A stretch of DNA of 64,000 nt, from positions 794,713 through 858,712 of the forward strand of contig MU004239.1 of NCBI GenBank assembly GCA_010405405.1, in the 5' to 3' direction. The position numbers were made by a program, and so were the translations under genes. This document shows positions 24,906 to 59,240 of this stretch, piece after piece (position 1 is the first letter of the stretch; every line of letters begins with the position of its first letter). This DNA is from Microthyrium microscopicum. Taxonomy: Eukaryota; Ascomycota; Dothideomycetes; Microthyriales; Microthyriaceae. The notes under the pieces were generated by a model that worked only from the letters and a program-made list of their open reading frames with translations, was not told where the DNA came from and did not search any database.

Positions 24906-26204
24906 TTACTTGGAGACTACGGCTGGAGCTGGACTTCTTTGATGTCCGACGTCTCCGTGGCCGGGAATGGTTATGGATTGGTCTTGTGGTGGAGGTGGTG
25001 GAGGCGGTGGGGTTTGAGTAGTTGGGGCAGCTGGAGGAGCTGGAGGAGCTGGAGGAGCTGGTGCTTGTTCATTGTTTTCTTGCTCTCTTACTGCTTGAGC
25101 TTTGAGTTGTTGTTGTTTCTTTTGCCAGTCGCTATGGAAGAATCAGTATTGTGTCAAGTCGTTGGGCTCAATTGACATACCCATAAGGAAGCCACTCCAT
25201 CTCATCTCGATCAAAGTGATGGCCTTCAAAGTCCACTCTGGTCAAGGAGATTGGCTTATATTCCTCTTCCAGCAGTTCCGTGTACGCATGCGGTATCCTC
25301 ACTGGCACGCCTTCGAGGGTACTGACACGAAGGGGAAAGATATCCTTCTCCCGATAGTGATGCTTATCCTTACACATCATCATTCCGGGAATACCGGCGG
25401 CTTCGGCCGTTGTATTGCGCCGAAGGGAGGTGATGTCGATGAATAGACCGGTACTCATGTCAATCCAGCGGGCATCAATCACATTGAGAACATCAGTAGT
25501 TGATCCATTGATGTAGTGGGGATTAATCTCCAGTAAATAGTCTTTGCCGCCTATGGTGCCGTCCTTAAACTTGTAGTGGTGCATGGTCATGTTGTAATAG
25601 TCGGCCTGAAAGTGGTTAGCTGCGTGAAGTACAGATTGATGGTATGCGCAAGATTGGAAAATCATGTATAACCATAGAAAATACAGGAAATACTGAAAAT
25701 ACTTGTTGTCCCGCAACATCGTTATGTACTTCAATGGTGTCGCGAAGTGTCGTATCAATCAAACTAATATGGAAAAGGTGAACTTACGAGGTATCTCATA
25801 GAAGATTGTGACATTTGCACGTCGACATCCGAATCCCAAGGCAATATCTTACGGTTCCACCACCACCCCATCAGCGTTCCGTGCATGATCCAAGTTTGAG
25901 CACCAATGTCGTTCATCGTAGACAAATAAGATTGCAAGAGTGAAGTGAGAGCAACTTTCCTATCCTTATTTTGAAGGACTTTGTCTGCGAAACGGCCATC
26001 ATAATGAGGATGGAAGATTGCCTCGTGAAAATACTTGTCTTTCGGGTCGCCAGGCTGTCCACTTAGTGACTTGGTCAAACGTGTTCGTACACTCCAGAAA
26101 TTTGCATCCCGCCGTTGGATGGCAGTCCGCCTTTGAAATTTGGTTGGAATGGCTTGACATATGGCGATAAGAGTGAAGAGGAGAAGAGCCAACCGCACCA
26201 ACAT
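24906..26204 (-). CDS. LicD/Mnn4-family phosphotransferase-like secretory protein
   Basis: LicD-family protein, the group that includes yeast Mnn4, which is needed for mannosylphosphate addition to glycans. Three exons, 26204-25788, 25605-25181 and 25131-24906, give about 355 residues. A signal peptide (MLVRLALLLFTLIAICQA) starts the protein. The nucleotidyltransferase-like core shows WIMHGTLMGWWWNRKILPWD followed at once by SDVDVQ, the paired-Asp metal site, then YLLEINPHY and DARWIDMSTGLFIDIT. The 182-bp intron between exons 1 and 2 was placed from its GTAAGT donor and CTAAC...TTTCAG acceptor; it bypasses a stop and keeps the alignment. The tail after the core is Gln-rich, then made of PAPPAPPAP and Pro runs with a small tandem repeat at DNA level (about 25025-25056). 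Donor and acceptor sugars are unknown. Confidence 0.85.
25019..25058. repeat. 9-bp coding minisatellite (Pro-Ala-Pro) in LicD-type gene
   Basis: Tandem GGAGCTGGA units on the plus strand, encoding repeated Ala-Pro-Pro on the minus strand, next to a CCA/CCT run for polyproline. Likely length-variable between strains. Confidence 0.75.
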
Positions 26205-27023
26205 GGCTGTTTTGAGTGGTGATAATCACCGCGACATCCAGGCTCTGTTAAGGTCGGAGAGTCCAGTCCCAGCCAGTTATAAATTCGATGACGTTTAGCA
26301 AGTTCTGGTCAAATATTCCAACACAAGAAGCCAGAGAATAAGTTGATATCAATCGATAGAATAGAGAATCCAATACCAGACTGGTTGACAAGAGCGGAAA
26401 GGGAAAGGTGATAATGATGACTTGAGCCAGGAGCGTTTGTGAGATGTAGTTGACGATAAGATGTAAGAGTCAGGTGGAGGTTATATGCTGGTAGATAGTA
26501 GTAGATGCGGGTAAGTCGATATAAGAGCAGATCTACAACGGCGCCAAGAGGATGTATTTCTAGCAAATCGGACTCATGGAAAGGCCGGTCGACGTAGGCA
26601 GAGGACGTGGACTGTGGAGATGGTTCAACACCAAGTCTCGATCAAAATTCGAACCCTTTCCTTTTGTAACGAATGGGCAGCTTGAGTGCCGCGCATCCGG
26701 CAACGCCCACTTGGACGCCTCCTTACTTTGCTTGCAAGCACACGACCATTTCCGTTGACCTGCCACCATTGAGCGTTGATGCCGGTTTTGACCCCTGTTA
26801 TATGCAACCTTTACTCCACCTGCATGCTTATCGCGCAGGCCAGTCCACTGGTCCAGAGATAGGAGTAGATACAGGCTCGTAAGCGATCAGGCTGGGGGTT
26901 AAAAGCCATCATGATGATTGATATCTCATCTCTGTAATACAAATGGTAACGATATAATCCAACAACTCAGCAGATGGTGAGGAAAACAAGGAGATTCTGC
27001 AAAAGATTGCATCTTGGCCGCGT
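26205..27023. other. Intergenic region left of the transposon
   Basis: About 0.8 kb holding the promoter of the LicD-type gene. Small frames near 26560-26880 overlap on both strands and show no domain. No gene is supported. Confidence 0.5.
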
Positions 27024-27026
27024 AAT

Positions 27027-27041
27027 GGGCAGCGTTAGCAG
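27027..27041 (+). repeat. Left terminal inverted repeat of Harbinger-type element
   Basis: 15 bp, exact reverse complement of 30473-30487; preceded by AAT at 27024-27026. Beyond the 15 bp the two ends remain loosely similar (GATTTGTGCAGG against AAATCGTGCACC). Confidence 0.85.
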
Positions 27042-28214
27042 TTCTGATTTGTGCAGGATTCCTGCACGATTATTGCAGAGGAGGAATTCAGTACTAACCT
27101 AATAGAGTCGTAATCCGCGCTAGTAGCGTAAATAAGTATTATTACGTAGGGATAAACGGCGTTATACAAATTTCCCCTATACTTGTTTTTAGATTGCAAT
27201 TTAGCGTATTTTAACTATAATTTTATTAAACAATATCTAAAATAGACCCCCTTTAAGAAGAATTAATTGTAATAACTACCATAGTAGTAGTACTATTAAT
27301 ATTATATATTATTATAGAAAAAGAGCTTTAAGAATAATATTATAGGCCTCTACTAGAATATATTTACTATGATTAGAATCTAGAGAATAGATCTAATCGC
27401 CTAATAGTAGTAGAATATTAATAACTGCTTTAAATTAGTAAAGGATAACATCTGTAGTACTAATTAGTATATAATAGATTTAAGAAGTATAAAATCCTAG
27501 AGCTAGTAGAGCTATTTAATCTTAAGAATCTTCTCTTACCTAATTACCTAAAGCTACTGTAGAAAGGGCTCTTTCTACTTTATATAGTATTATATAGGTT
27601 ATTAAAAATCTATACTTATAACGATATCTATTAGCACTTTAGTAGAAGTGCTATATATCTAAAGAAGTACTTTAATAGGACTATAACTTATCTTGATTAA
27701 AGATACGCTAATACTCTACTAAGATTCTACTCGTTATTAAATCTATAATGGATTTGTACCTATAATAAAATAATCGATAGAGCTAGTAGTAGTAATATAT
27801 ACTAGAATTATATTAATGGCACGCATATTAACGTCTATAGGCTAATAGGTTGTATCTAAAGATTATTATATTCTAGACACGATAAAGTATATTATATTAA
27901 ATACTAGGTAGTCTATTGCCCTAACGAATTAATGATAGTAATAGATTTATTACATCTAGGGGGTTTAAATAATCTAAGAATGTTATTAACGTTAGGTCTT
28001 AAAGAACGACTTTAAACGGTTAGTATTAATTCTGTCTAGATATAAATATAACTTACCTCTTTAGATGTTTAATGGGGGCCAAAAACTACTACTATATAAC
28101 GATATAGTATATCTAAATAACGACCTAATAATATCTCTTTATATAAGAATTCTTACGCTAGCGTAGAAGGCGTGGAATAAAGAAATATTAAAATACTGCG
28201 TGTGTATAGAATAG

Positions 28215-28454
28215 GTGTTTAGCAATATAAAAGCCTTGTTTAAGAGAGGAATATTTAATTTTAGGTTAGGCCTACAGATAGGATTAATATTAGTTGGAGC
28301 GTATATAGCGATATTGTTCTTACTTGCTAACTATTATACCTATTATTATAGAAATATTATTTTCGCGCGCTTTAGGGTAGATTTGCTAACTATTAGTAGA
28401 TATCTTAATCTTAGTAATATATTTAATAGTAGGATACTATTAGATTATCTATAA
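28215..28454 (+). pseudogene. Remnant of HARBI1-like DDE transposase
   Basis: The longest open stretch within the element, 79 codons. It includes FSNIKALFKRG and a hydrophobic tail typical of the C-terminal part of DDE_4/HARBI1 nucleases. It continues in frame upstream past stops to CIE. It is a decayed fragment of the transposase and not a gene of its own. Confidence 0.6.
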
Positions 28455-30472
28455 GAAGACAATTCGAACGGTATAGAATAGTTGTAGTAGTTATTAAAGA
28501 AGTAGATATTACAAAGTAAAGTTAGATATTCTTGTTAAAGGAGAAGAAGTTAATAAAGTAGAGTTAGCTAATTATTTAACCCTTCTATATACTTTTAAAG
28601 CTTTTAGTGTCTATCGTAACATTTCTATAAAAACTAAATTCCACCTTTACTACCAATTTACATAGGAAACACTAGCTTAATTTTTATAACTATAATTAAC
28701 TTAAAGACTTCCTTAATAACTCCTTTATCTCTATTATCTCTAAGCGAGCTGCCCTTACCTCTTCCCTTAATTTTGTAACTTTACTTCCTTCACTACTACC
28801 ACTACTACTACTAATTCTACTACTAATAACCATATTATCTTAAGTTCTAGACCTGTTCGAATTGAGACGTTCTAACTATTAAACTAGGCTATTATAAATA
28901 CTCATAATTTTATTAACCCTAGATACAGAAGTTTAAGTTCTACGCGCAGGCGTTAGAACTAGTATTATAGCAGGTCAAGTTTGAATAAGTAGAACTAACC
29001 CTTCCGTAGGGGCGTAATCTACGCCAGAAGTAGTTAAAAGCTAAGTTTTAGGAATATTTTCGACATCTTCTAGTTTAATAGTAATTATTATAATATCTTC
29101 TTATTAAATATTAGATAAAAGCGCTTAACGTTCTAAATATGTCTTATATAATTTATTACGTAATTCTATAGCTTCTTTACGACGTTGCTTAATAACGTTT
29201 ATAGAAGCTTTCTTCGTTGATATCTTAGTTTAGTAATAGTTGTATGTTTTTATAAAGGCATTTAGAGTAAGTTGGAATTCATCTATTAGTATATTATATC
29301 CTAACTTATCTTTTAGTTCTTAACGCTATTAAAGAAGAGCATGATTGATCGCTAGCTGAATTGCTTGTCCTAAAGGACTGTCTTAGAGGCCCTGAATAGA
29401 TTTATATTACTTAGTAACTTCAATCTACCACTATATCTTCTATCTAGTAATAGCGTCGTCGCTATTACTACTAAAGCTATCCTTTTGCCTTAACGCGCAC
29501 ATTAATACGACCATTAGACGTCGTTATCCCTATACTAGACCTTACTTCCTGCCTGCACGATTACTTGTTAAAGCGCTTAAACTAGTAGTAGGGGTTAGGG
29601 TAGGAATATAGGTCCTAGCGACTACTAGCGTAGCCTAACGTGTTAAAGGCCCTATAGTAGTATTTTAGGTAGTAGGCACCTACGTAGACGGGAGATAAAG
29701 AGCTTATATTAAGCTCTAAGATATTAAATCCTATGTGAAGCTATCTAGCTCTCTAGTAGAGCTATTTTAGCGTAGATAATTAGTATCCTAAAGCTAAGTC
29801 TCTACTTTGACCTAAGTATCTAGTTTAACCTAAGTCTCTAGATTAAAGTAGTATAGATTTAGCTAGTAAGTACTAAAAATCAAGGCATGTAGTAATACTA
29901 ATCTTAAAATAAGTTAAACATACTATGGTTTTAATAGTAATAGTATTAGCGATGACGGTAGAGTATTCTTAGAATACCCTAAATATAGTAAAGGAGGTTT
30001 AATAAGATCGTGAAGCTTAGGATCAATTTAGTTTAATAGGATTTGAAACGACATCATCGTTAAATTACTTAGTAGTAGTTATTAATTTTGTATTTTAATT
30101 AGAATTACTAACGATAAAGATAGGATTATTTAAATTTAGCTTCTTCTATATATCTAGCACAATTATATACCGCATCTAGATTAATTCTAGCGTTATTAAT
30201 TATCTCTTTTGCCTTCAACGCGTATAGCGCGTTTAAATTACTTTACGATCTTTATAATAATACTATTCCGCAGGACTATACTAAAATTAATATAACGTTA
30301 AAATATACACTGCGCTAGGCTTTAATAGGTAAAAGATACGCTGATTATTATGCCAAAATCCTGCGTTAGTCGCTTTGGCTAAGCTCTAGCGCCATTTGCA
30401 GGATTTTGGCTTTCTAGCCCGAATAGGAAGAGATCTAATCCTACGGCGTTCTCCGAGGGTGCACGATTTGGG

Positions 30473-53441: not shown

Positions 53442-56400
53442 ATGGTCAATTTCGCCCAAGCCGCGGCTAATGCCTTGCGGAAGCGGTTACCCTTGGCCGA
53501 TGTAACAGATCAGAATGCTGTTGCTCAGAATCGAGACAAAGCCGCGGTCCAGTCAAAGAATCAACCAGCTCAATATAGCGCTTCAGCTAATGCAGCATCA
53601 TCTTCTCAAGCATCGACACCTGCCACTCGACCCGAGACTGCTCGCGGCCTAGTTCGACAGAGCTCCTTGAATGCGTATTCATTTTCGGGACAATCCCAAG
53701 ATCAGCACAGCATTAATTCACCACATCCCGTCAAGACGCGTATCGGCGACTGGACTTTGGGTGCTAGCATTAGTTCTGGCGGTACCTGCACAGTCAAGAA
53801 TGTTCGCAATGTCTACACCGGACAAGATGCAGTAGCAAAGATTGTGAACAAGAAAACTGCGGAGCAGGTTCGCGCAAAAAGCCTGGCCAATTTGGCTATT
53901 CGTTTGAAGGAAGTGGGTGACATCCTATATCCATCAGATGTTGACTTGCCGATTGGTATTGAGCGAGAAGTTACCATCATGCGCGTTGTTGAGCACCCGA
54001 ACATTGTTAAGCTCTATGATGTTTGGGAAAACCAAGATGAAATGTAAGTCCAGTGAATATATTGCAGAGCTGGTGCTAACAAGATTCAGCTATGTCATTA
54101 TGGAAAAGATCAAAGGCTGGGAGCTGTTTCATTTTCTCCAGAACAATCCACGCCTTTCCGAACAGCTGGTGGTGTATATATTTCGCCAGATCATTGAGGG
54201 AATGCTCTACTGTCACCGGATGCAGATTTTCCATCGTGATCTGAAGCCGGAGAACATCATGATTGACTTCAACCACCAAGTCAAAGTCATTGATTTTGGC
54301 ATGGCTGCATATCAACCAAATGGCGAGATGCTGAAGACACCCTGTGGCAGCCCACACTACGCTGCGCCTGAGCTCCTTGATGGCTTTTTGTATGACGGTG
54401 AGAAAGCTGATGTTTGGAGTTTGACGGTCATTCTCTATGTTATGCTGGGAGAACGCAATGATCCTCCGTTCAACTACGTCCATATGCCTGGTTGGACCGA
54501 TCTTGACAGACTCAAGTACTTGTACAGCAAAATCAAGGAATGTCGCCCGACGATACCCAATGATTGGAGCCGCGAAGCCAAACATCTATTGAGTCGAGGA
54601 TTCGTCCGGGACCCTGCTCAGCGAATAACTCTCACTGAACTGTGGCATCATCCCCTTATGCACAAGTATGATGTGACGCTTGGTCTGCAGCTTAAGCCAC
54701 ATATGAATGACTGGATTGGCGATTCCCCGACTATCCTGAACTGGGTTTTGCTTACTCGGGACTCAATTGATCGCAAGATACTTCGTCATTTGATGATGCT
54801 TTGGCACGATCATCCTGAAAGCTTCATCATTCGAAAACTCCTCGACGGTCAGCTGAACCAAGAGAAGTACTTCTACGCTGCACTGAAGATAGATTATGAC
54901 CAGCAAGATGAGAGACGTGTGAAGAACCAAGAGCAGGCCCACAAGCCAGGACAACGTCTTGCTATAGCTTCCAGAAACGATTTGCACCATGGTGGGCTAC
55001 GTCCTGCTGAGCGCCCACCAGCATTACCTCTATGTCATCTACCAGTACCACTCAGTCAGCAGTGGACTCCTCCTCCAGGTCCTGTAGAGCTGGGTATTTC
55101 TGCAGAGAAATGGGAGTCATTTACGCGAAGAAAGGATCCAACTTACCAGCGTCCGGCACATCTCATGCCATCGACTGAAGTCCCCAACGAAGGTCCAGCA
55201 TATGTGCTTAACGGAGTTACCGACGTCCCACCACATCTATTGGCCGCTCCCAGTGCAAGTTCAAATGAGAAGTCAGTGGTTGATAAGGGCAAGGCGAAGG
55301 CTACTTCAAAGTCTCACCGTCGCTCCAAATCGCAGTTGTCCATATTCGGTGATGAGCATCTCACATCATCTTACAATCTGGTGCTGGAGTCCGGATCTCA
55401 GAATCCTCATGACCCAAATCGAGCTTCCCGTGAACCTACACATCCAGGTACCCATTCTTCCAGCGTTACTGCTCGTGGTGAGAGCTCTAAGAAGAATACC
55501 GGATCAGTCAACCATCCGTTATCCGCGCGCCTTGAAGCTATCAAACGTCAACCAGTCTTGCGCCCAATCTCCATGTCAAAGAGCATATCCTTGAGTCAGC
55601 TGTCCATTGATAGTAGAGTATCCGTGTCGTCGCGACGCTCACAATTGGGTAACCGCTCGCAAATCCTTCTGGTCATGAAAAAGCCCAGTGAGCGTCACAA
55701 GAAGAATGTCAGCTTCGATCATAAGCGACGTGCTTCTGCACACTTGCTGCCTCGGTTCGCGGGTTTTGATTCTTCTACTCCAGAATTGTCGAGCGATGTT
55801 TGGGATGGTGATATTCCTTCTAGTCCTCCGATGATCTCAACGCCCGATGGAGTCGACGTCAGTTCTTTCACAAATAGGACAATCCGAACCAAGACTATTG
55901 ATATGGTGGCTCGTAAAGCCAGCAGTGAGCTTGAAAAGTTCTGTGATGATGCATTCTTCCGTTCATCTCTTAGCGATGATTCTCCTCACTCTTCTGGCTT
56001 GGGTGTTACGAATTTCGATGGTAAGAACCTGCTGGCTTCAGTATCTACACGGTCTTCCAAAGAGCGAAAATTTGACAAAGCAATCCTGGATCGTCCGTTA
56101 CCTCCAACTCCTCGTGGTAGAGAGGATTCGAGAATGACGACCGACACCATGGAGACTCCAAATGCGTACACAACTCGAACACTTGAAGAGACACGCAACC
56201 GTCTGTCAACCAAGTATGAGCGACACGGCGTAAATTCTGATGACCATTATAACGAGATTATTCGGCAGCTGGACAACCTCATTCCAACACAATCGTCTAA
56301 GCGACCACTGTTCCGTGCTGGGTCCGAGTTTTTGCAATCAATTGATGACTTGAACCCAATGGCCGCAATTCCAGAAGAAGAGCGTCTGGCAGACCTTGGC

Positions 56401-57989
56401 ACAGTTCCTTCCTCCTCTGAGCGACTCCCACGTCAGAAAGCTCCCGTTGTTGGGCCTGAGGCCACTTTCCAAAACCAGCGGGGCGACCACCGTAGTCACG
56501 CACACACAAATACAATTCGAGTTGTCGAGCCCTCCTCTCCTTTGCCTCCCAGCATCCCACCACTGAACATTAGAAAATCCAGTGGTGCATCATCATCAAC
56601 ATCGACTGTTACGAGAAAGAAGTCTCGTCCGAGTAAGTTTTACCTCCTCTTTCTTCTGGTGTTATTTGTTTTTGTTTAAACGCGCTTTTTGCAAAGTTGA
56701 GGGTCACTGACGTGGTTGTTGCGATAGACAAGAAGACTTCACAGCAGATTAGTTCACGGGGATTTCATCGCGTTCCAGTCATGTGTACGGCGGACGCCCC
56801 AAAGATGCTGAGACCTACTCTCATGGCAAATGGTCAATTGCCTCCTCCACCGCCAGGCCCACTGGTGACCCACAACCTCCCCGAGGGCCAGTGGGTGGCT
56901 GGACGAGGAACTCGCTTGGACGACCGAACGGAAAGCCGCGATCGTCGCAATAGAGCACAGGCTGATGAGCCTGGAATCGTGGCGAAGATGATGAGCACAT
57001 TGACTCGAAAACCTCGACCTCGTTTGGTAGTAGATGGTAAGTCTTAATCATCAAATTTCTTGTGTTTCTTACTTACCTTTATCCCAGCTCCAGGCCTCGG
57101 TGATGTTCACAATCGAAACAAACCCGAATTCATGGTCATGAAGATCGATCCGCCGAAGTTCCAAGCCAAGGAGAAGAACTTCTTTGAGTTTTTATTTGGT
57201 CGTGGTACTGTGCGAATTCCTATCTCTCGCATCGTCGCCATGAAACACGCACGTGATGTGAGCAAAGCTGCGATTCAAGACTATCTGATCGTCAGCTCCG
57301 ATGACTATGGCGATTATCGCCAAGACCCGCAGAAACCTGGTGTTTTCGGGGCAAGTCTTATGTCAGGAAACCGTAAGTACTCAAGTTTCTAACCAGAAGC
57401 ATTGAAGCTAACATGCGAACTAGAATTCCGCCTTGCGCCAATGTCGTTCGTAATCGAGCTCTTCCAGATGATGGAGGGCGAACCACAAACAGCCATTCCA
57501 CTGACTGTGGTTCGTATCACTCTAACCAGCACTATCGACACGGGTTCCTTCGATGATCTGCAGACCCTTTGTGCTGCTATCGTGTCTATCATGGAGTCTC
57601 GCGGTGTGAGCTTCGATTTTTCGAGCCGAAAAGCCAAAAAGGCGATTCGAGATGTCCAGGGCCAGACCAAGAAACGCCTTGAAACCCAGGCTATCTTTGT
57701 CGAGCGAAACCAGCCGGTCACTGAGGAGCTGTATGCTGACGATTCAGAGCGTCGTCGTGTTGAGGCTCGTCGCCTCAAAGCGGTTGAGGATGCTGTTGCT
57801 CTAGAGCGAAAATCTCGCCAAAACAGCCCAGCGGACACAATAGTTCGCCAGGAATGTCCAATCACCAAACATGGGTTTGAAGTCGACGCAGAGTGGACCA
57901 CGGCCGGCGCTCAGCGTTCTCCGAAACCTGATTCTGCACAGCTTCAGCAGCCAAAGGAAGCCAACGAGACTCACAAAGCTAGTGGCTAG
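53442..57989 (+). CDS. Gin4/Hsl1/Nim1-related serine/threonine kinase with fungal KA1 domain
   Basis: Kinase related to the septin-associated Gin4/Hsl1/Kcc4 group, which couples morphogenesis to mitosis. Five exons, 53442-54043, 54090-56632, 56728-57036, 57088-57372 and 57424-57989, give 1434 residues to a TAG. The kinase domain spans about 103-394: Lys in AVAKIV (133), HRDLKPEN (Asp251), DFG (Asp269), GSPHYAAPE. The group-typical segment LWHDHPESFIIRKLL follows. A long disordered, Ser-rich middle leads to a fungal KA1-like lipid-binding module (about 1165-1310, FEFLFGRGTVRIPISRIVA to DDLQTLCAAIVSIMES). Oddities: the glycine loop is degenerate (LGASISSGGTCTV, keeping only the middle Gly of GxGxxG), there is an insertion near NDPPFNYVHMPGWTD, and the same frame stays open for 416 codons after the TAG (separate entry). 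The sequence is divergent from canonical Gin4/Hsl1, so it may be a paralog. Confidence 0.85.
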
Positions 57990-59240
57990 TCGCCAGTGGT
58001 TTTTCCAAGCTCTCAAAAAATCCCGCCTGTTGATTTGAAGCGTCTTCACTCCGAAGAGAAACGCACTGCATTCAAGGGCTTGACTCCTCAACAAATTCGC
58101 GATGCCCCAACACCACCATCCGCAGCGTCTCTGGGAGCGTCGTCCTTTGACGGCGCTGAGCACCAGATTGAAGCCTCGATGATTCGGTATGCACCAGAGT
58201 ATCCTGCTATGTCAGCTGAGCATGTTCATGAGGAGCTACAGCTCCCAAACCTCGCACCTCTGCGCCGTGCTCGACGCGCTAATCATCGCGGCGAGTACCG
58301 ATCGCTCATGACTGGGCAGAGTGCTATTCGCAATGGCTCTTCTTCGTCCTCTCAAGGGCAACAACCATCACTGCGCTCTTCATCTTCTCGAGAACAGCTC
58401 TCCTCCCAGCGCCCCTCGCCTTCTCGAGGGCCGAACTCATCTCAGCAGTCCTCGACTCCTCGCGTTGCCTCTAATTTACGGTACATGACTTCGACAGATG
58501 ACCTGAATGAGACTCAACCTCGATGGGATGACGAGCGCCAATGCTGGATTGATCCGCGTCTAGCAAAACCATCTTCTATCCCGCACCCATCTACTCGGCG
58601 TCAGTATCGTCGTGAATCACCACCCTCTCCTATTCCGCAGCCACCTGCTCGGACTCGAAGTGGTCGTCAATCGCCACCATCACCCCTCCCGCAGCCAGCT
58701 GCTCTGCTTTCGGGTTACCGTCAAATGACTACTCAGGCTCAGGTTTTCGGTCAATCAACTGCTTCCGCAACTGTAGGCTACGGTAATTTTCAGCGATCTC
58801 AAGGCTACGGTCCCCCCACCCCAGACTTGGGACAGTCCTATACTCAGCCTCAAGGCTACGGTGTATCGGCTGCGACTCCTCAAGGCTACGGCAGACCCTA
58901 TGTTACGCCTCAAGGCAATGACCCACAGGCTACCACGACCAATGCCTTCTCTTCCCATCGCCGCCGTCAGGCAACCACCACCGAGCCGCTTCCGCTATTC
59001 TCACAGCGGGCTGAGTCACCACTACCTAGCGCCCCGTATGTTCATCAGCCCCTCCTGGGTCGCGGTCGCCGTGACTCTGATGGGCCAGTAATTCCTAGCT
59101 GGCTTGAGGAACCCCGTGAAGTCCGACAATTCAGAGGAACCCTTGACATTGAAGCAGATGTCGCAGAAATGGAGCGGGAACGAAAGCGAGAAAGCGATGC
59201 TCGCCGCGCTGAGGATATCTGGGATTCCTACGAGTACTAA
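57990..59240 (+). CDS. In-frame continuation after the kinase stop (416 codons)
   Basis: Directly after the TAG at 57987-57989 the kinase frame stays open to a TAA at 59238-59240. The encoded sequence has real-protein composition throughout: KRLHSEEKRTAFKGLTPQQ right after the stop, then a Ser/Arg/Pro-rich region, tandem QGYG-type repeats (about 58780-58910) and a closing charged, coiled-coil-like segment (DIEADVAEMERERKRESDAR) before DIWDSYEY. The first ATG in this part is at 58179, 61 codons inside apparently coding sequence, and only 190 bp separate it from the kinase stop. I therefore read it as the C-terminus of the kinase, reached by read-through, by an unseen splice, or lost to a nonsense change or base-call error, rather than as a separate gene. 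Expression is unproven. Confidence 0.55.
   Translation, partial: SPVVFPSSQKIPPVDLKRLHSEEKRTAFKGLTPQQIRDAPTPPSAASLGASSFDGAEHQIEASMIRYAPEYPAMSAEHVHEELQLPNLAPLRRARRANHRGEYRSLMTGQSAIRNGSSSSSQGQQPSLRSSSSREQLSSQRPSPSRGPNSSQQSSTPRVASNLRYMTSTDDLNETQPRWDDERQCWIDPRLAKPSSIPHPSTRRQYRRESPPSPIPQPPARTRSGRQSPPSPLPQPAALLSGYRQMTTQAQVFGQSTASATVGYGNFQRSQGYGPPTPDLGQSYTQPQGYGVSAATPQGYGRPYVTPQGNDPQATTTNAFSSHRRRQATTTEPLPLFSQRAESPLPSAPYVHQPLLGRGRRDSDGPVIPSWLEEPREVRQFRGTLDIEADVAEMERERKRESDARRAEDIWDSYEY

What the first reader, a model, noticed from the sequence alone, without database searches (positions are those of the whole stretch)
57970..59240. One in-frame TAG splits a 1.85-kilo-codon kinase frame
Seen directly: the kinase frame reaches GGC-TAG-TCG at 57984-57992 and then remains open in the same frame for 416 codons with ordinary protein composition, QGYG-like repeats and a charged tail. 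A separate downstream gene would need its promoter inside 190 bp and would discard 61 good codons. Explanations, in rough order: a recent nonsense change (a CAG-to-TAG transition would give Gln), a base-call error, programmed stop read-through producing two isoforms, or a missed splice. The downstream base context is not the well-known UGA-CUA read-through motif, which weakens the third. Read-through would place an extra disordered tail behind a lipid-binding KA1 domain.
Basis: partly seen in the sequence, partly recalled or inferred. Interest (0 to 1): 0.7.

Follow-up and report, generated by a model that had tools for sequence, protein, structure and literature searches.

The report
Stop codon splitting a fungal kinase
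A fungal cell-cycle-type kinase gene is interrupted by one stop codon followed by 416 more protein-like codons; this is most likely a very young loss in this isolate or a sequence error, but the stop lies in a hairpin of the kind that some fungi edit at the RNA level, which is worth a simple check.

Summary
A five-exon Hsl1-type kinase gene (window 53442-59240) reads to TAG at 57987-57989 (codon 1435) and stays open for 416 more codons. The tail is real coding sequence: codon usage resembles the body, the 63 codons before the first downstream Met also score as coding, and a scrambled relic of the gene on another contig differs from the tail mostly at third codon positions (23 of 40). No splice candidate tested has a credible donor. 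The stop is therefore young or bypassed. Two facts are new: the TAG sits in a threefold 7-bp near-repeat, and in the five-base loop of a very stable hairpin (3 of 1,560 other TAGs in the window match it), the setting favoured by A-to-I stop-codon editing in Sordariomycetes. Against editing: two of three marker genes place this fungus nearer Aspergillus than Sordariomycetes, the +3 base is unfavourable, and a small sample showed no second case. Best reading: a young or isolate-specific nonsense change (or consensus error), about 0.5; RNA editing about 0.2. Orthologs, reads and RNA data, which decide it, were not available.

The parts
53442..54043 (+). exon 1, start of kinase domain
   Evidence: gene model; Pkinase match E 3.3e-5, below the curated cut-off for this exon alone
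54090..56632 (+). exon 2, rest of kinase domain and linker
   Evidence: Pkinase E 1.5e-43; best PDB match is HSL1, E 1.1e-50
56728..57036 (+). exon 3
   Evidence: three pieces of it in the relic on contig C3
57088..57372 (+). exon 4
57424..57989 (+). exon 5 up to and including the TAG
57987..57989 (+). in-frame TAG, codon 1435
57978..57999 (+). 7-bp tandem near-repeat, 3.1 copies, consensus GCTAGTG, containing the TAG
   Evidence: score 30, the minimum asked for
57975..58003 (+). predicted RNA hairpin, 11 bp with one mismatch, loop UAGUC at 57987-57991
57990..59240 (+). same-frame tail, 416 codons and TAA

Best explanation
The gene is an Hsl1/Gin4-type kinase whose normal product carries the long low-complexity tail. 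In this isolate, or only in this assembly, a very young change inside a short 7-bp near-repeat put an in-frame TAG between the kinase body and the tail. Shown: one stop, intact frame on both sides, coding signature of the tail, no credible intron among those tested. Inferred: that the stop is young and not bypassed, because an untranslated 1,248-base frame would soon collect further stops and indels. If the base call is right and nothing bypasses the stop, this isolate makes a kinase of 1,434 residues without the tail; the kinase domain is untouched.
For: One lesion only in a five-exon gene. Tail codon usage correlates with the body (RSCU r 0.68; maximum of 500 shuffles 0.38). The 63 codons between TAG and the first Met score as coding; 0 of 5,000 shuffles reach that. 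Tail against the C3 relic: differences 7, 10, 23 by codon position, third-position excess p 0.0014, so it was translated. 154 of 3,744 single changes in the tail give a stop; with an assumed 0.1 indel per substitution the chance that an idle tail is still open is 0.17 at 1% divergence and 0.03 at 2%; without indels 0.60 and 0.36. No splice rescue among nine pairs. The stop lies in a short tandem near-repeat, a kind of place where both mutation and assembly go wrong (general knowledge).
Against: The TAG sits in an exceptionally stable hairpin loop, which a random nonsense change would rarely hit. No reads, second isolate or ortholog was available, so neither youth nor error is shown directly.
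Confidence: 0.5

Rival explanations
1. A-to-I mRNA editing: the UAG in the hairpin loop is deaminated by a Tad2-Tad3-type enzyme at some stage (sexual in most known cases), so that ribosomes pass and the tail is added only then.
For: UAG with U at -1 and G at +1; A in the loop of an 11-bp hairpin. Only 3 of 1,560 other TAGs of the window (2 of 932 with similar G+C), 3 of 1,458 in other held loci, some overlapping the window, and 10 of 5,000 flank shuffles have one as stable. Published preference for UAG, hairpin loops and stable hairpins. Bases -2, -1, +1 and +4 are preferred ones. The tail is coding.
Against: Reported in Sordariomycetes and Pyronema, not found in Aspergillus nidulans and Botrytis cinerea; two of three markers place this genome nearer Aspergillus (one search is neutral). 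C at +3 is depleted at real sites. Being in a hairpin loop at all is common (458 of 1,560; 2,019 of 5,000 shuffles), and the near-repeat may explain the hairpin. None of 6 DNA-methylase matches, on 4 loci, had a stop inside. Of 54 kinase matches 6 had a stop inside; 5 of these 6 were read, and their stops, 3 TAGs among them, look by eye like introns or match edges.
Confidence: 0.2
2. Programmed ribosomal read-through of UAG makes a minor long isoform.
For: A long coding tail lies directly behind a single stop.
Against: The known fungal context is a UGA one (title of PMC4207609 in the listing; the letters UGA CUA are recalled); here it is UAG UCG. The hairpin encloses the stop instead of following it.
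Confidence: 0.07
3. The TAG is the kinase's stop and the tail is, or is becoming, a separate gene or idle 3' sequence.
For: The kinase domain is complete before the TAG; a Met lies at codon 64 of the tail; codon scores fall to about zero from codon 1526 on.
Against: 30-codon windows on the two sides of the TAG score alike (0.29 to 0.34 bits per codon for codons 1406-1465; 0.08 just upstream, inside the body), and the 63 codons before the Met score as coding.
Confidence: 0.12
4. A missed intron removes the TAG.
For: Nine in-frame GT-AG pairs of 40-160 bases span it.
Against: Best donor 3 of 6 against 6 of 6 in all four real introns; no CTRAY branch point in any of the nine. Longer introns were not scanned.
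Confidence: 0.04

Closest known systems
Hsl1/Gin4/Kcc4 (Nim1) kinases of yeasts
   Same: Kinase domain and a long non-kinase region; best PDB sequence match is HSL1 (organism recalled).
   Different: 416-codon low-complexity tail behind an in-frame stop; no KA1 domain found by sequence.
PUK1 and about 70 other Fusarium graminearum genes whose stop codons are corrected by A-to-I editing
   Same: In-frame UAG inside an otherwise intact kinase gene; U at -1, G at +1. Edited sites in general favour hairpin loops; PUK1's own fold was not looked at.
   Different: PUK1 has two tandem UAGs that break its kinase domain; here there is one and the kinase domain is complete. Lineage probably not Sordariomycetes; no RNA evidence.
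CHE1 premature stop of Fusarium, edited in hyphae
   Same: Single TAG, predicted in a hairpin loop, splitting one frame (passages).
   Different: Conserved among species and seen in RNA there; untested here.
UGA-context read-through of fungal enzymes (PMC4207609, listing only)
   Same: C-terminal extension behind a stop.
   Different: Other stop, other context.

Membership tests
Hsl1/Gin4-type kinase | Protein kinase domain closest to HSL1 | tested here: met
   (closest among PDB chains only)
Hsl1/Gin4-type kinase | C-terminal KA1 domain | tested here: inconclusive
   no Pfam or PDB sequence match; its fold was not predicted
Gene with A-to-I-edited premature stop | UAG with U at -1 and A or G at +1 | tested here: met
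   preferences
Gene with A-to-I-edited premature stop | Edited A in a stable hairpin loop | tested here: met
   predicted only
Gene with A-to-I-edited premature stop | Purine at +3 and +4 (a preference, not a requirement) | tested here: not met
   +3 is C, +4 is G
Gene with A-to-I-edited premature stop | Fungus of an editing lineage (Sordariomycetes, some Pezizomycetes) | tested here: inconclusive
   markers lean away from Sordariomycetes
Gene with A-to-I-edited premature stop | A-to-G in RNA at the site | not testable with these tools
   no RNA data
UGA-CUA read-through gene | UGA followed by CUA (recalled) | tested here: not met
   UAG UCG

The most novel reading that the evidence does not exclude
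Stage-specific A-to-I editing of a hairpin-borne UAG switches a long tail onto an Hsl1-type kinase in a fungus that, if the markers place it rightly, lies outside the classes where mRNA editing has been reported, with a duplicated DUF726 (Ame1-family) protein as a possible independent activator.
Probability: 0.15. Interest if true: 0.75.

Novelty: new member of a known kind. Interest (0 to 1): 0.38.

Why it matters
If the stop is only a young loss or an error, it is ordinary and a caution for gene models: annotation would drop 416 residues. If RNA editing bridges it, editing would probably extend beyond the classes where it is known and would give a cell-cycle-type kinase two stage-dependent lengths; one RT-PCR on the right tissue would go far to decide.

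Tried and rejected
Relatives of the tail in genome contigs and viral contigs: none confirmed among 49 and 9 pattern matches. NCBIfam and PDB with the tail: nothing; Pfam: one match at E 0.33, not significant. rDNA for naming the fungus: not found (one search scored 39 of 1,125 candidates). A paper search for the genome size listed a Parastagonospora nodorum paper; its largest draft contig, 3.5 Mb in the passages seen, does not fit 4.5 Mb here. Aldolase as a class marker: not usable, since no Sordariomycete chain that I recognise was listed. Ame1 residues MV/KN: at simple spacing from the GxSxG serine I saw neither pair by eye in the three DUF726 copies, one of which lacks that serine, so not decisive. 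The C3 relic as a witness for the codon at the stop: it lacks that stretch. Structure prediction of the tail: the queue was full four times.

Full report
What is there. The window holds a five-exon kinase gene on the + strand with four short introns, each with the donor GTAAGT. The kinase part matches Pkinase and, among PDB chains, HSL1 best (that this is the yeast protein is recalled). The frame reaches TAG at 57987-57989, codon 1435, and then stays open for 416 codons to TAA at 59238-59240.

Is the tail coding? The tests agree, with shades. The open stretch has a chance of about 1e-6 at this composition. Its synonymous codon usage correlates with the body at 0.68, against at most 0.38 in 500 shuffles; same-length pieces of the body give 0.82 on average and at least 0.71, so the tail is somewhat lower, though those pieces overlap their reference. 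30-codon windows score 0.29 to 0.34 bits per codon for codons 1406-1465, on both sides of the stop, 0.08 just upstream in the body, and about zero from codon 1526 to 1585, where the table ends. The 63 codons between TAG and the first Met score 12.4 bits in frame, 0.4 and -15.9 in the other two, and 0 of 5,000 shuffles reach that. The whole-tail score is modest, 0.09 bits per codon, though highest of six frames, the next being 0.05.

A relic elsewhere in the genome gives evolutionary evidence. Contig C3, minus strand, 1654134-1655407, holds seven pieces of the same gene in scrambled order: three of exon 3, one of the start of exon 5 with a bit of intron, one from before the TAG and two overlapping ones from after it. 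The more diverged post-TAG piece differs from the window at 40 of 231 sites, 7, 10 and 23 by codon position (p 0.0014); in its part before the Met the counts are 3, 4, 5, which show little by themselves. Controls before the TAG: exon 3 pieces 3-1-12, 1-1-6 and 5-1-14; the piece just before the TAG 5-2-9 (p 0.05); the exon 5 start 4-6-7, without bias. The second post-TAG piece is 98% identical. So the tail evolved as protein. The relic lacks the stretch around the TAG and cannot say what stood there.

How old is the stop? 154 of 3,744 single changes in the tail would give a stop. With an assumed 0.1 indel per substitution an idle tail would still be open with probability 0.42 at 0.5%, 0.17 at 1% and 0.03 at 2% divergence; without indels 0.77, 0.60 and 0.36. 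The stop is therefore young, or it is bypassed.

Splicing. Of the nine in-frame GT-AG pairs of 40-160 bases that would remove the TAG, the best donors match GTAAGT at 3 of 6 bases and none has a CTRAY branch point.

Local structure. The TAG lies in a 3.1-copy 7-bp near-repeat at 57978-57999 (at the minimum score asked for). RNA folding places UAG in the five-base loop of a hairpin at 57975-58003; z is -3.0 and -3.3 for 25 and 41 bases, -2.4 and -1.9 for 63 and 103 bases. Of 1,560 other TAGs in the window, 458 have the A in a hairpin loop, 8 in one with as many pairs and a loop of at most 8, and 3 in one as stable; 3 of 1,458 in other held loci, some of which overlap the window, and 10 of 5,000 flank shuffles are as stable. 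I looked for the hairpin because editing predicts it, but the energy cut-off is the site's own value, and the near-repeat may have produced the hairpin without selection.

Editing as an explanation. In Fusarium graminearum UAG in hairpin loops is edited in sexual tissue, and about 70 genes depend on correction of a stop; related editing is known in Neurospora, Sordaria and Pyronema (parts 1 and 2 of 3 of the review PMC11156358; abstract and passages of PMC4817773; passages of PMC11087585, PMC7306014 and PMC11169179). Base preferences (passages of PMC9600606) fit at -2, -1, +1 and +4, are neutral at +2 and unfavourable at +3. Editing was not found in Aspergillus nidulans and Botrytis cinerea. 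The class of this fungus is not known. Isocitrate lyase is 73.6% identical to 1dqu and 67.0 and 67.6% to 5e9h and 5e9g, which are 68.7% identical to each other; Get3 scores 366 bits against 3ibg and 309 against 3iqw; trehalose-phosphate synthase 227 against 5hvm and 225 against 6jbi. Species recalled: 1dqu, 3ibg and 5hvm Aspergillus; 5e9h, 5e9g, 3iqw and 6jbi Sordariomycetes. Each comparison used part of one protein. Two of three thus lean to the Aspergillus side. None of 6 DNA-methylase matches had a stop inside. Of 54 kinase matches 6 had a stop inside; I read 5 of them, and by eye their stops look like introns or match edges. No second case was found, in a small sample. One literature search for A-to-I editing with Dothideomycetes listed one paper, on Fusarium.

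Judgement. A young or isolate-specific nonsense change, or a consensus error, in a short repeat explains everything but the hairpin, and hairpins this stable occur at about 1 in 500 TAGs. Editing explains the hairpin but needs a lineage in which it is unproven. I give 0.5 and 0.2, with the rest spread over a genuine stop with a separate or decaying tail, read-through and splicing. These odds are my own weighing, not computed.

Noticed in passing
L006 (G000:C3:1650000-1659900), C3:1654134-1655407 by BLAST, to about 1655646 by eye, minus strand: Scrambled pieces of the same kinase gene, 80-98% identical, with TTTGCGAACACACTTG in four exact copies there and two one-mismatch copies elsewhere in the genome. 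Exon 3 pieces differ mostly at third positions, so the source copy seems to have been functional. One tail piece sits between two exon 3 pieces that adjoin in the window.
   Followed up: partly
L039, L040, L041 (G000 C7 and C1): Three DUF726 (Ame1-family) genes; L039 and L041 look more alike, and L041 has GWGVG where L039 has the GYSLG serine motif.
   Followed up: partly
window 26001-30000: A+T-rich block, G+C 0.31-0.38 against 0.42-0.51 in the other 2-kb bins; possibly mutated repeats.
   Followed up: no
L011, L016, L021 and L036-L038: Contigs C2, C7 and C12 begin with CCCTAA-type telomere repeats; contig C20 and the readable part of the first 9 kb of C19 are about 19-23% G+C.
   Followed up: no
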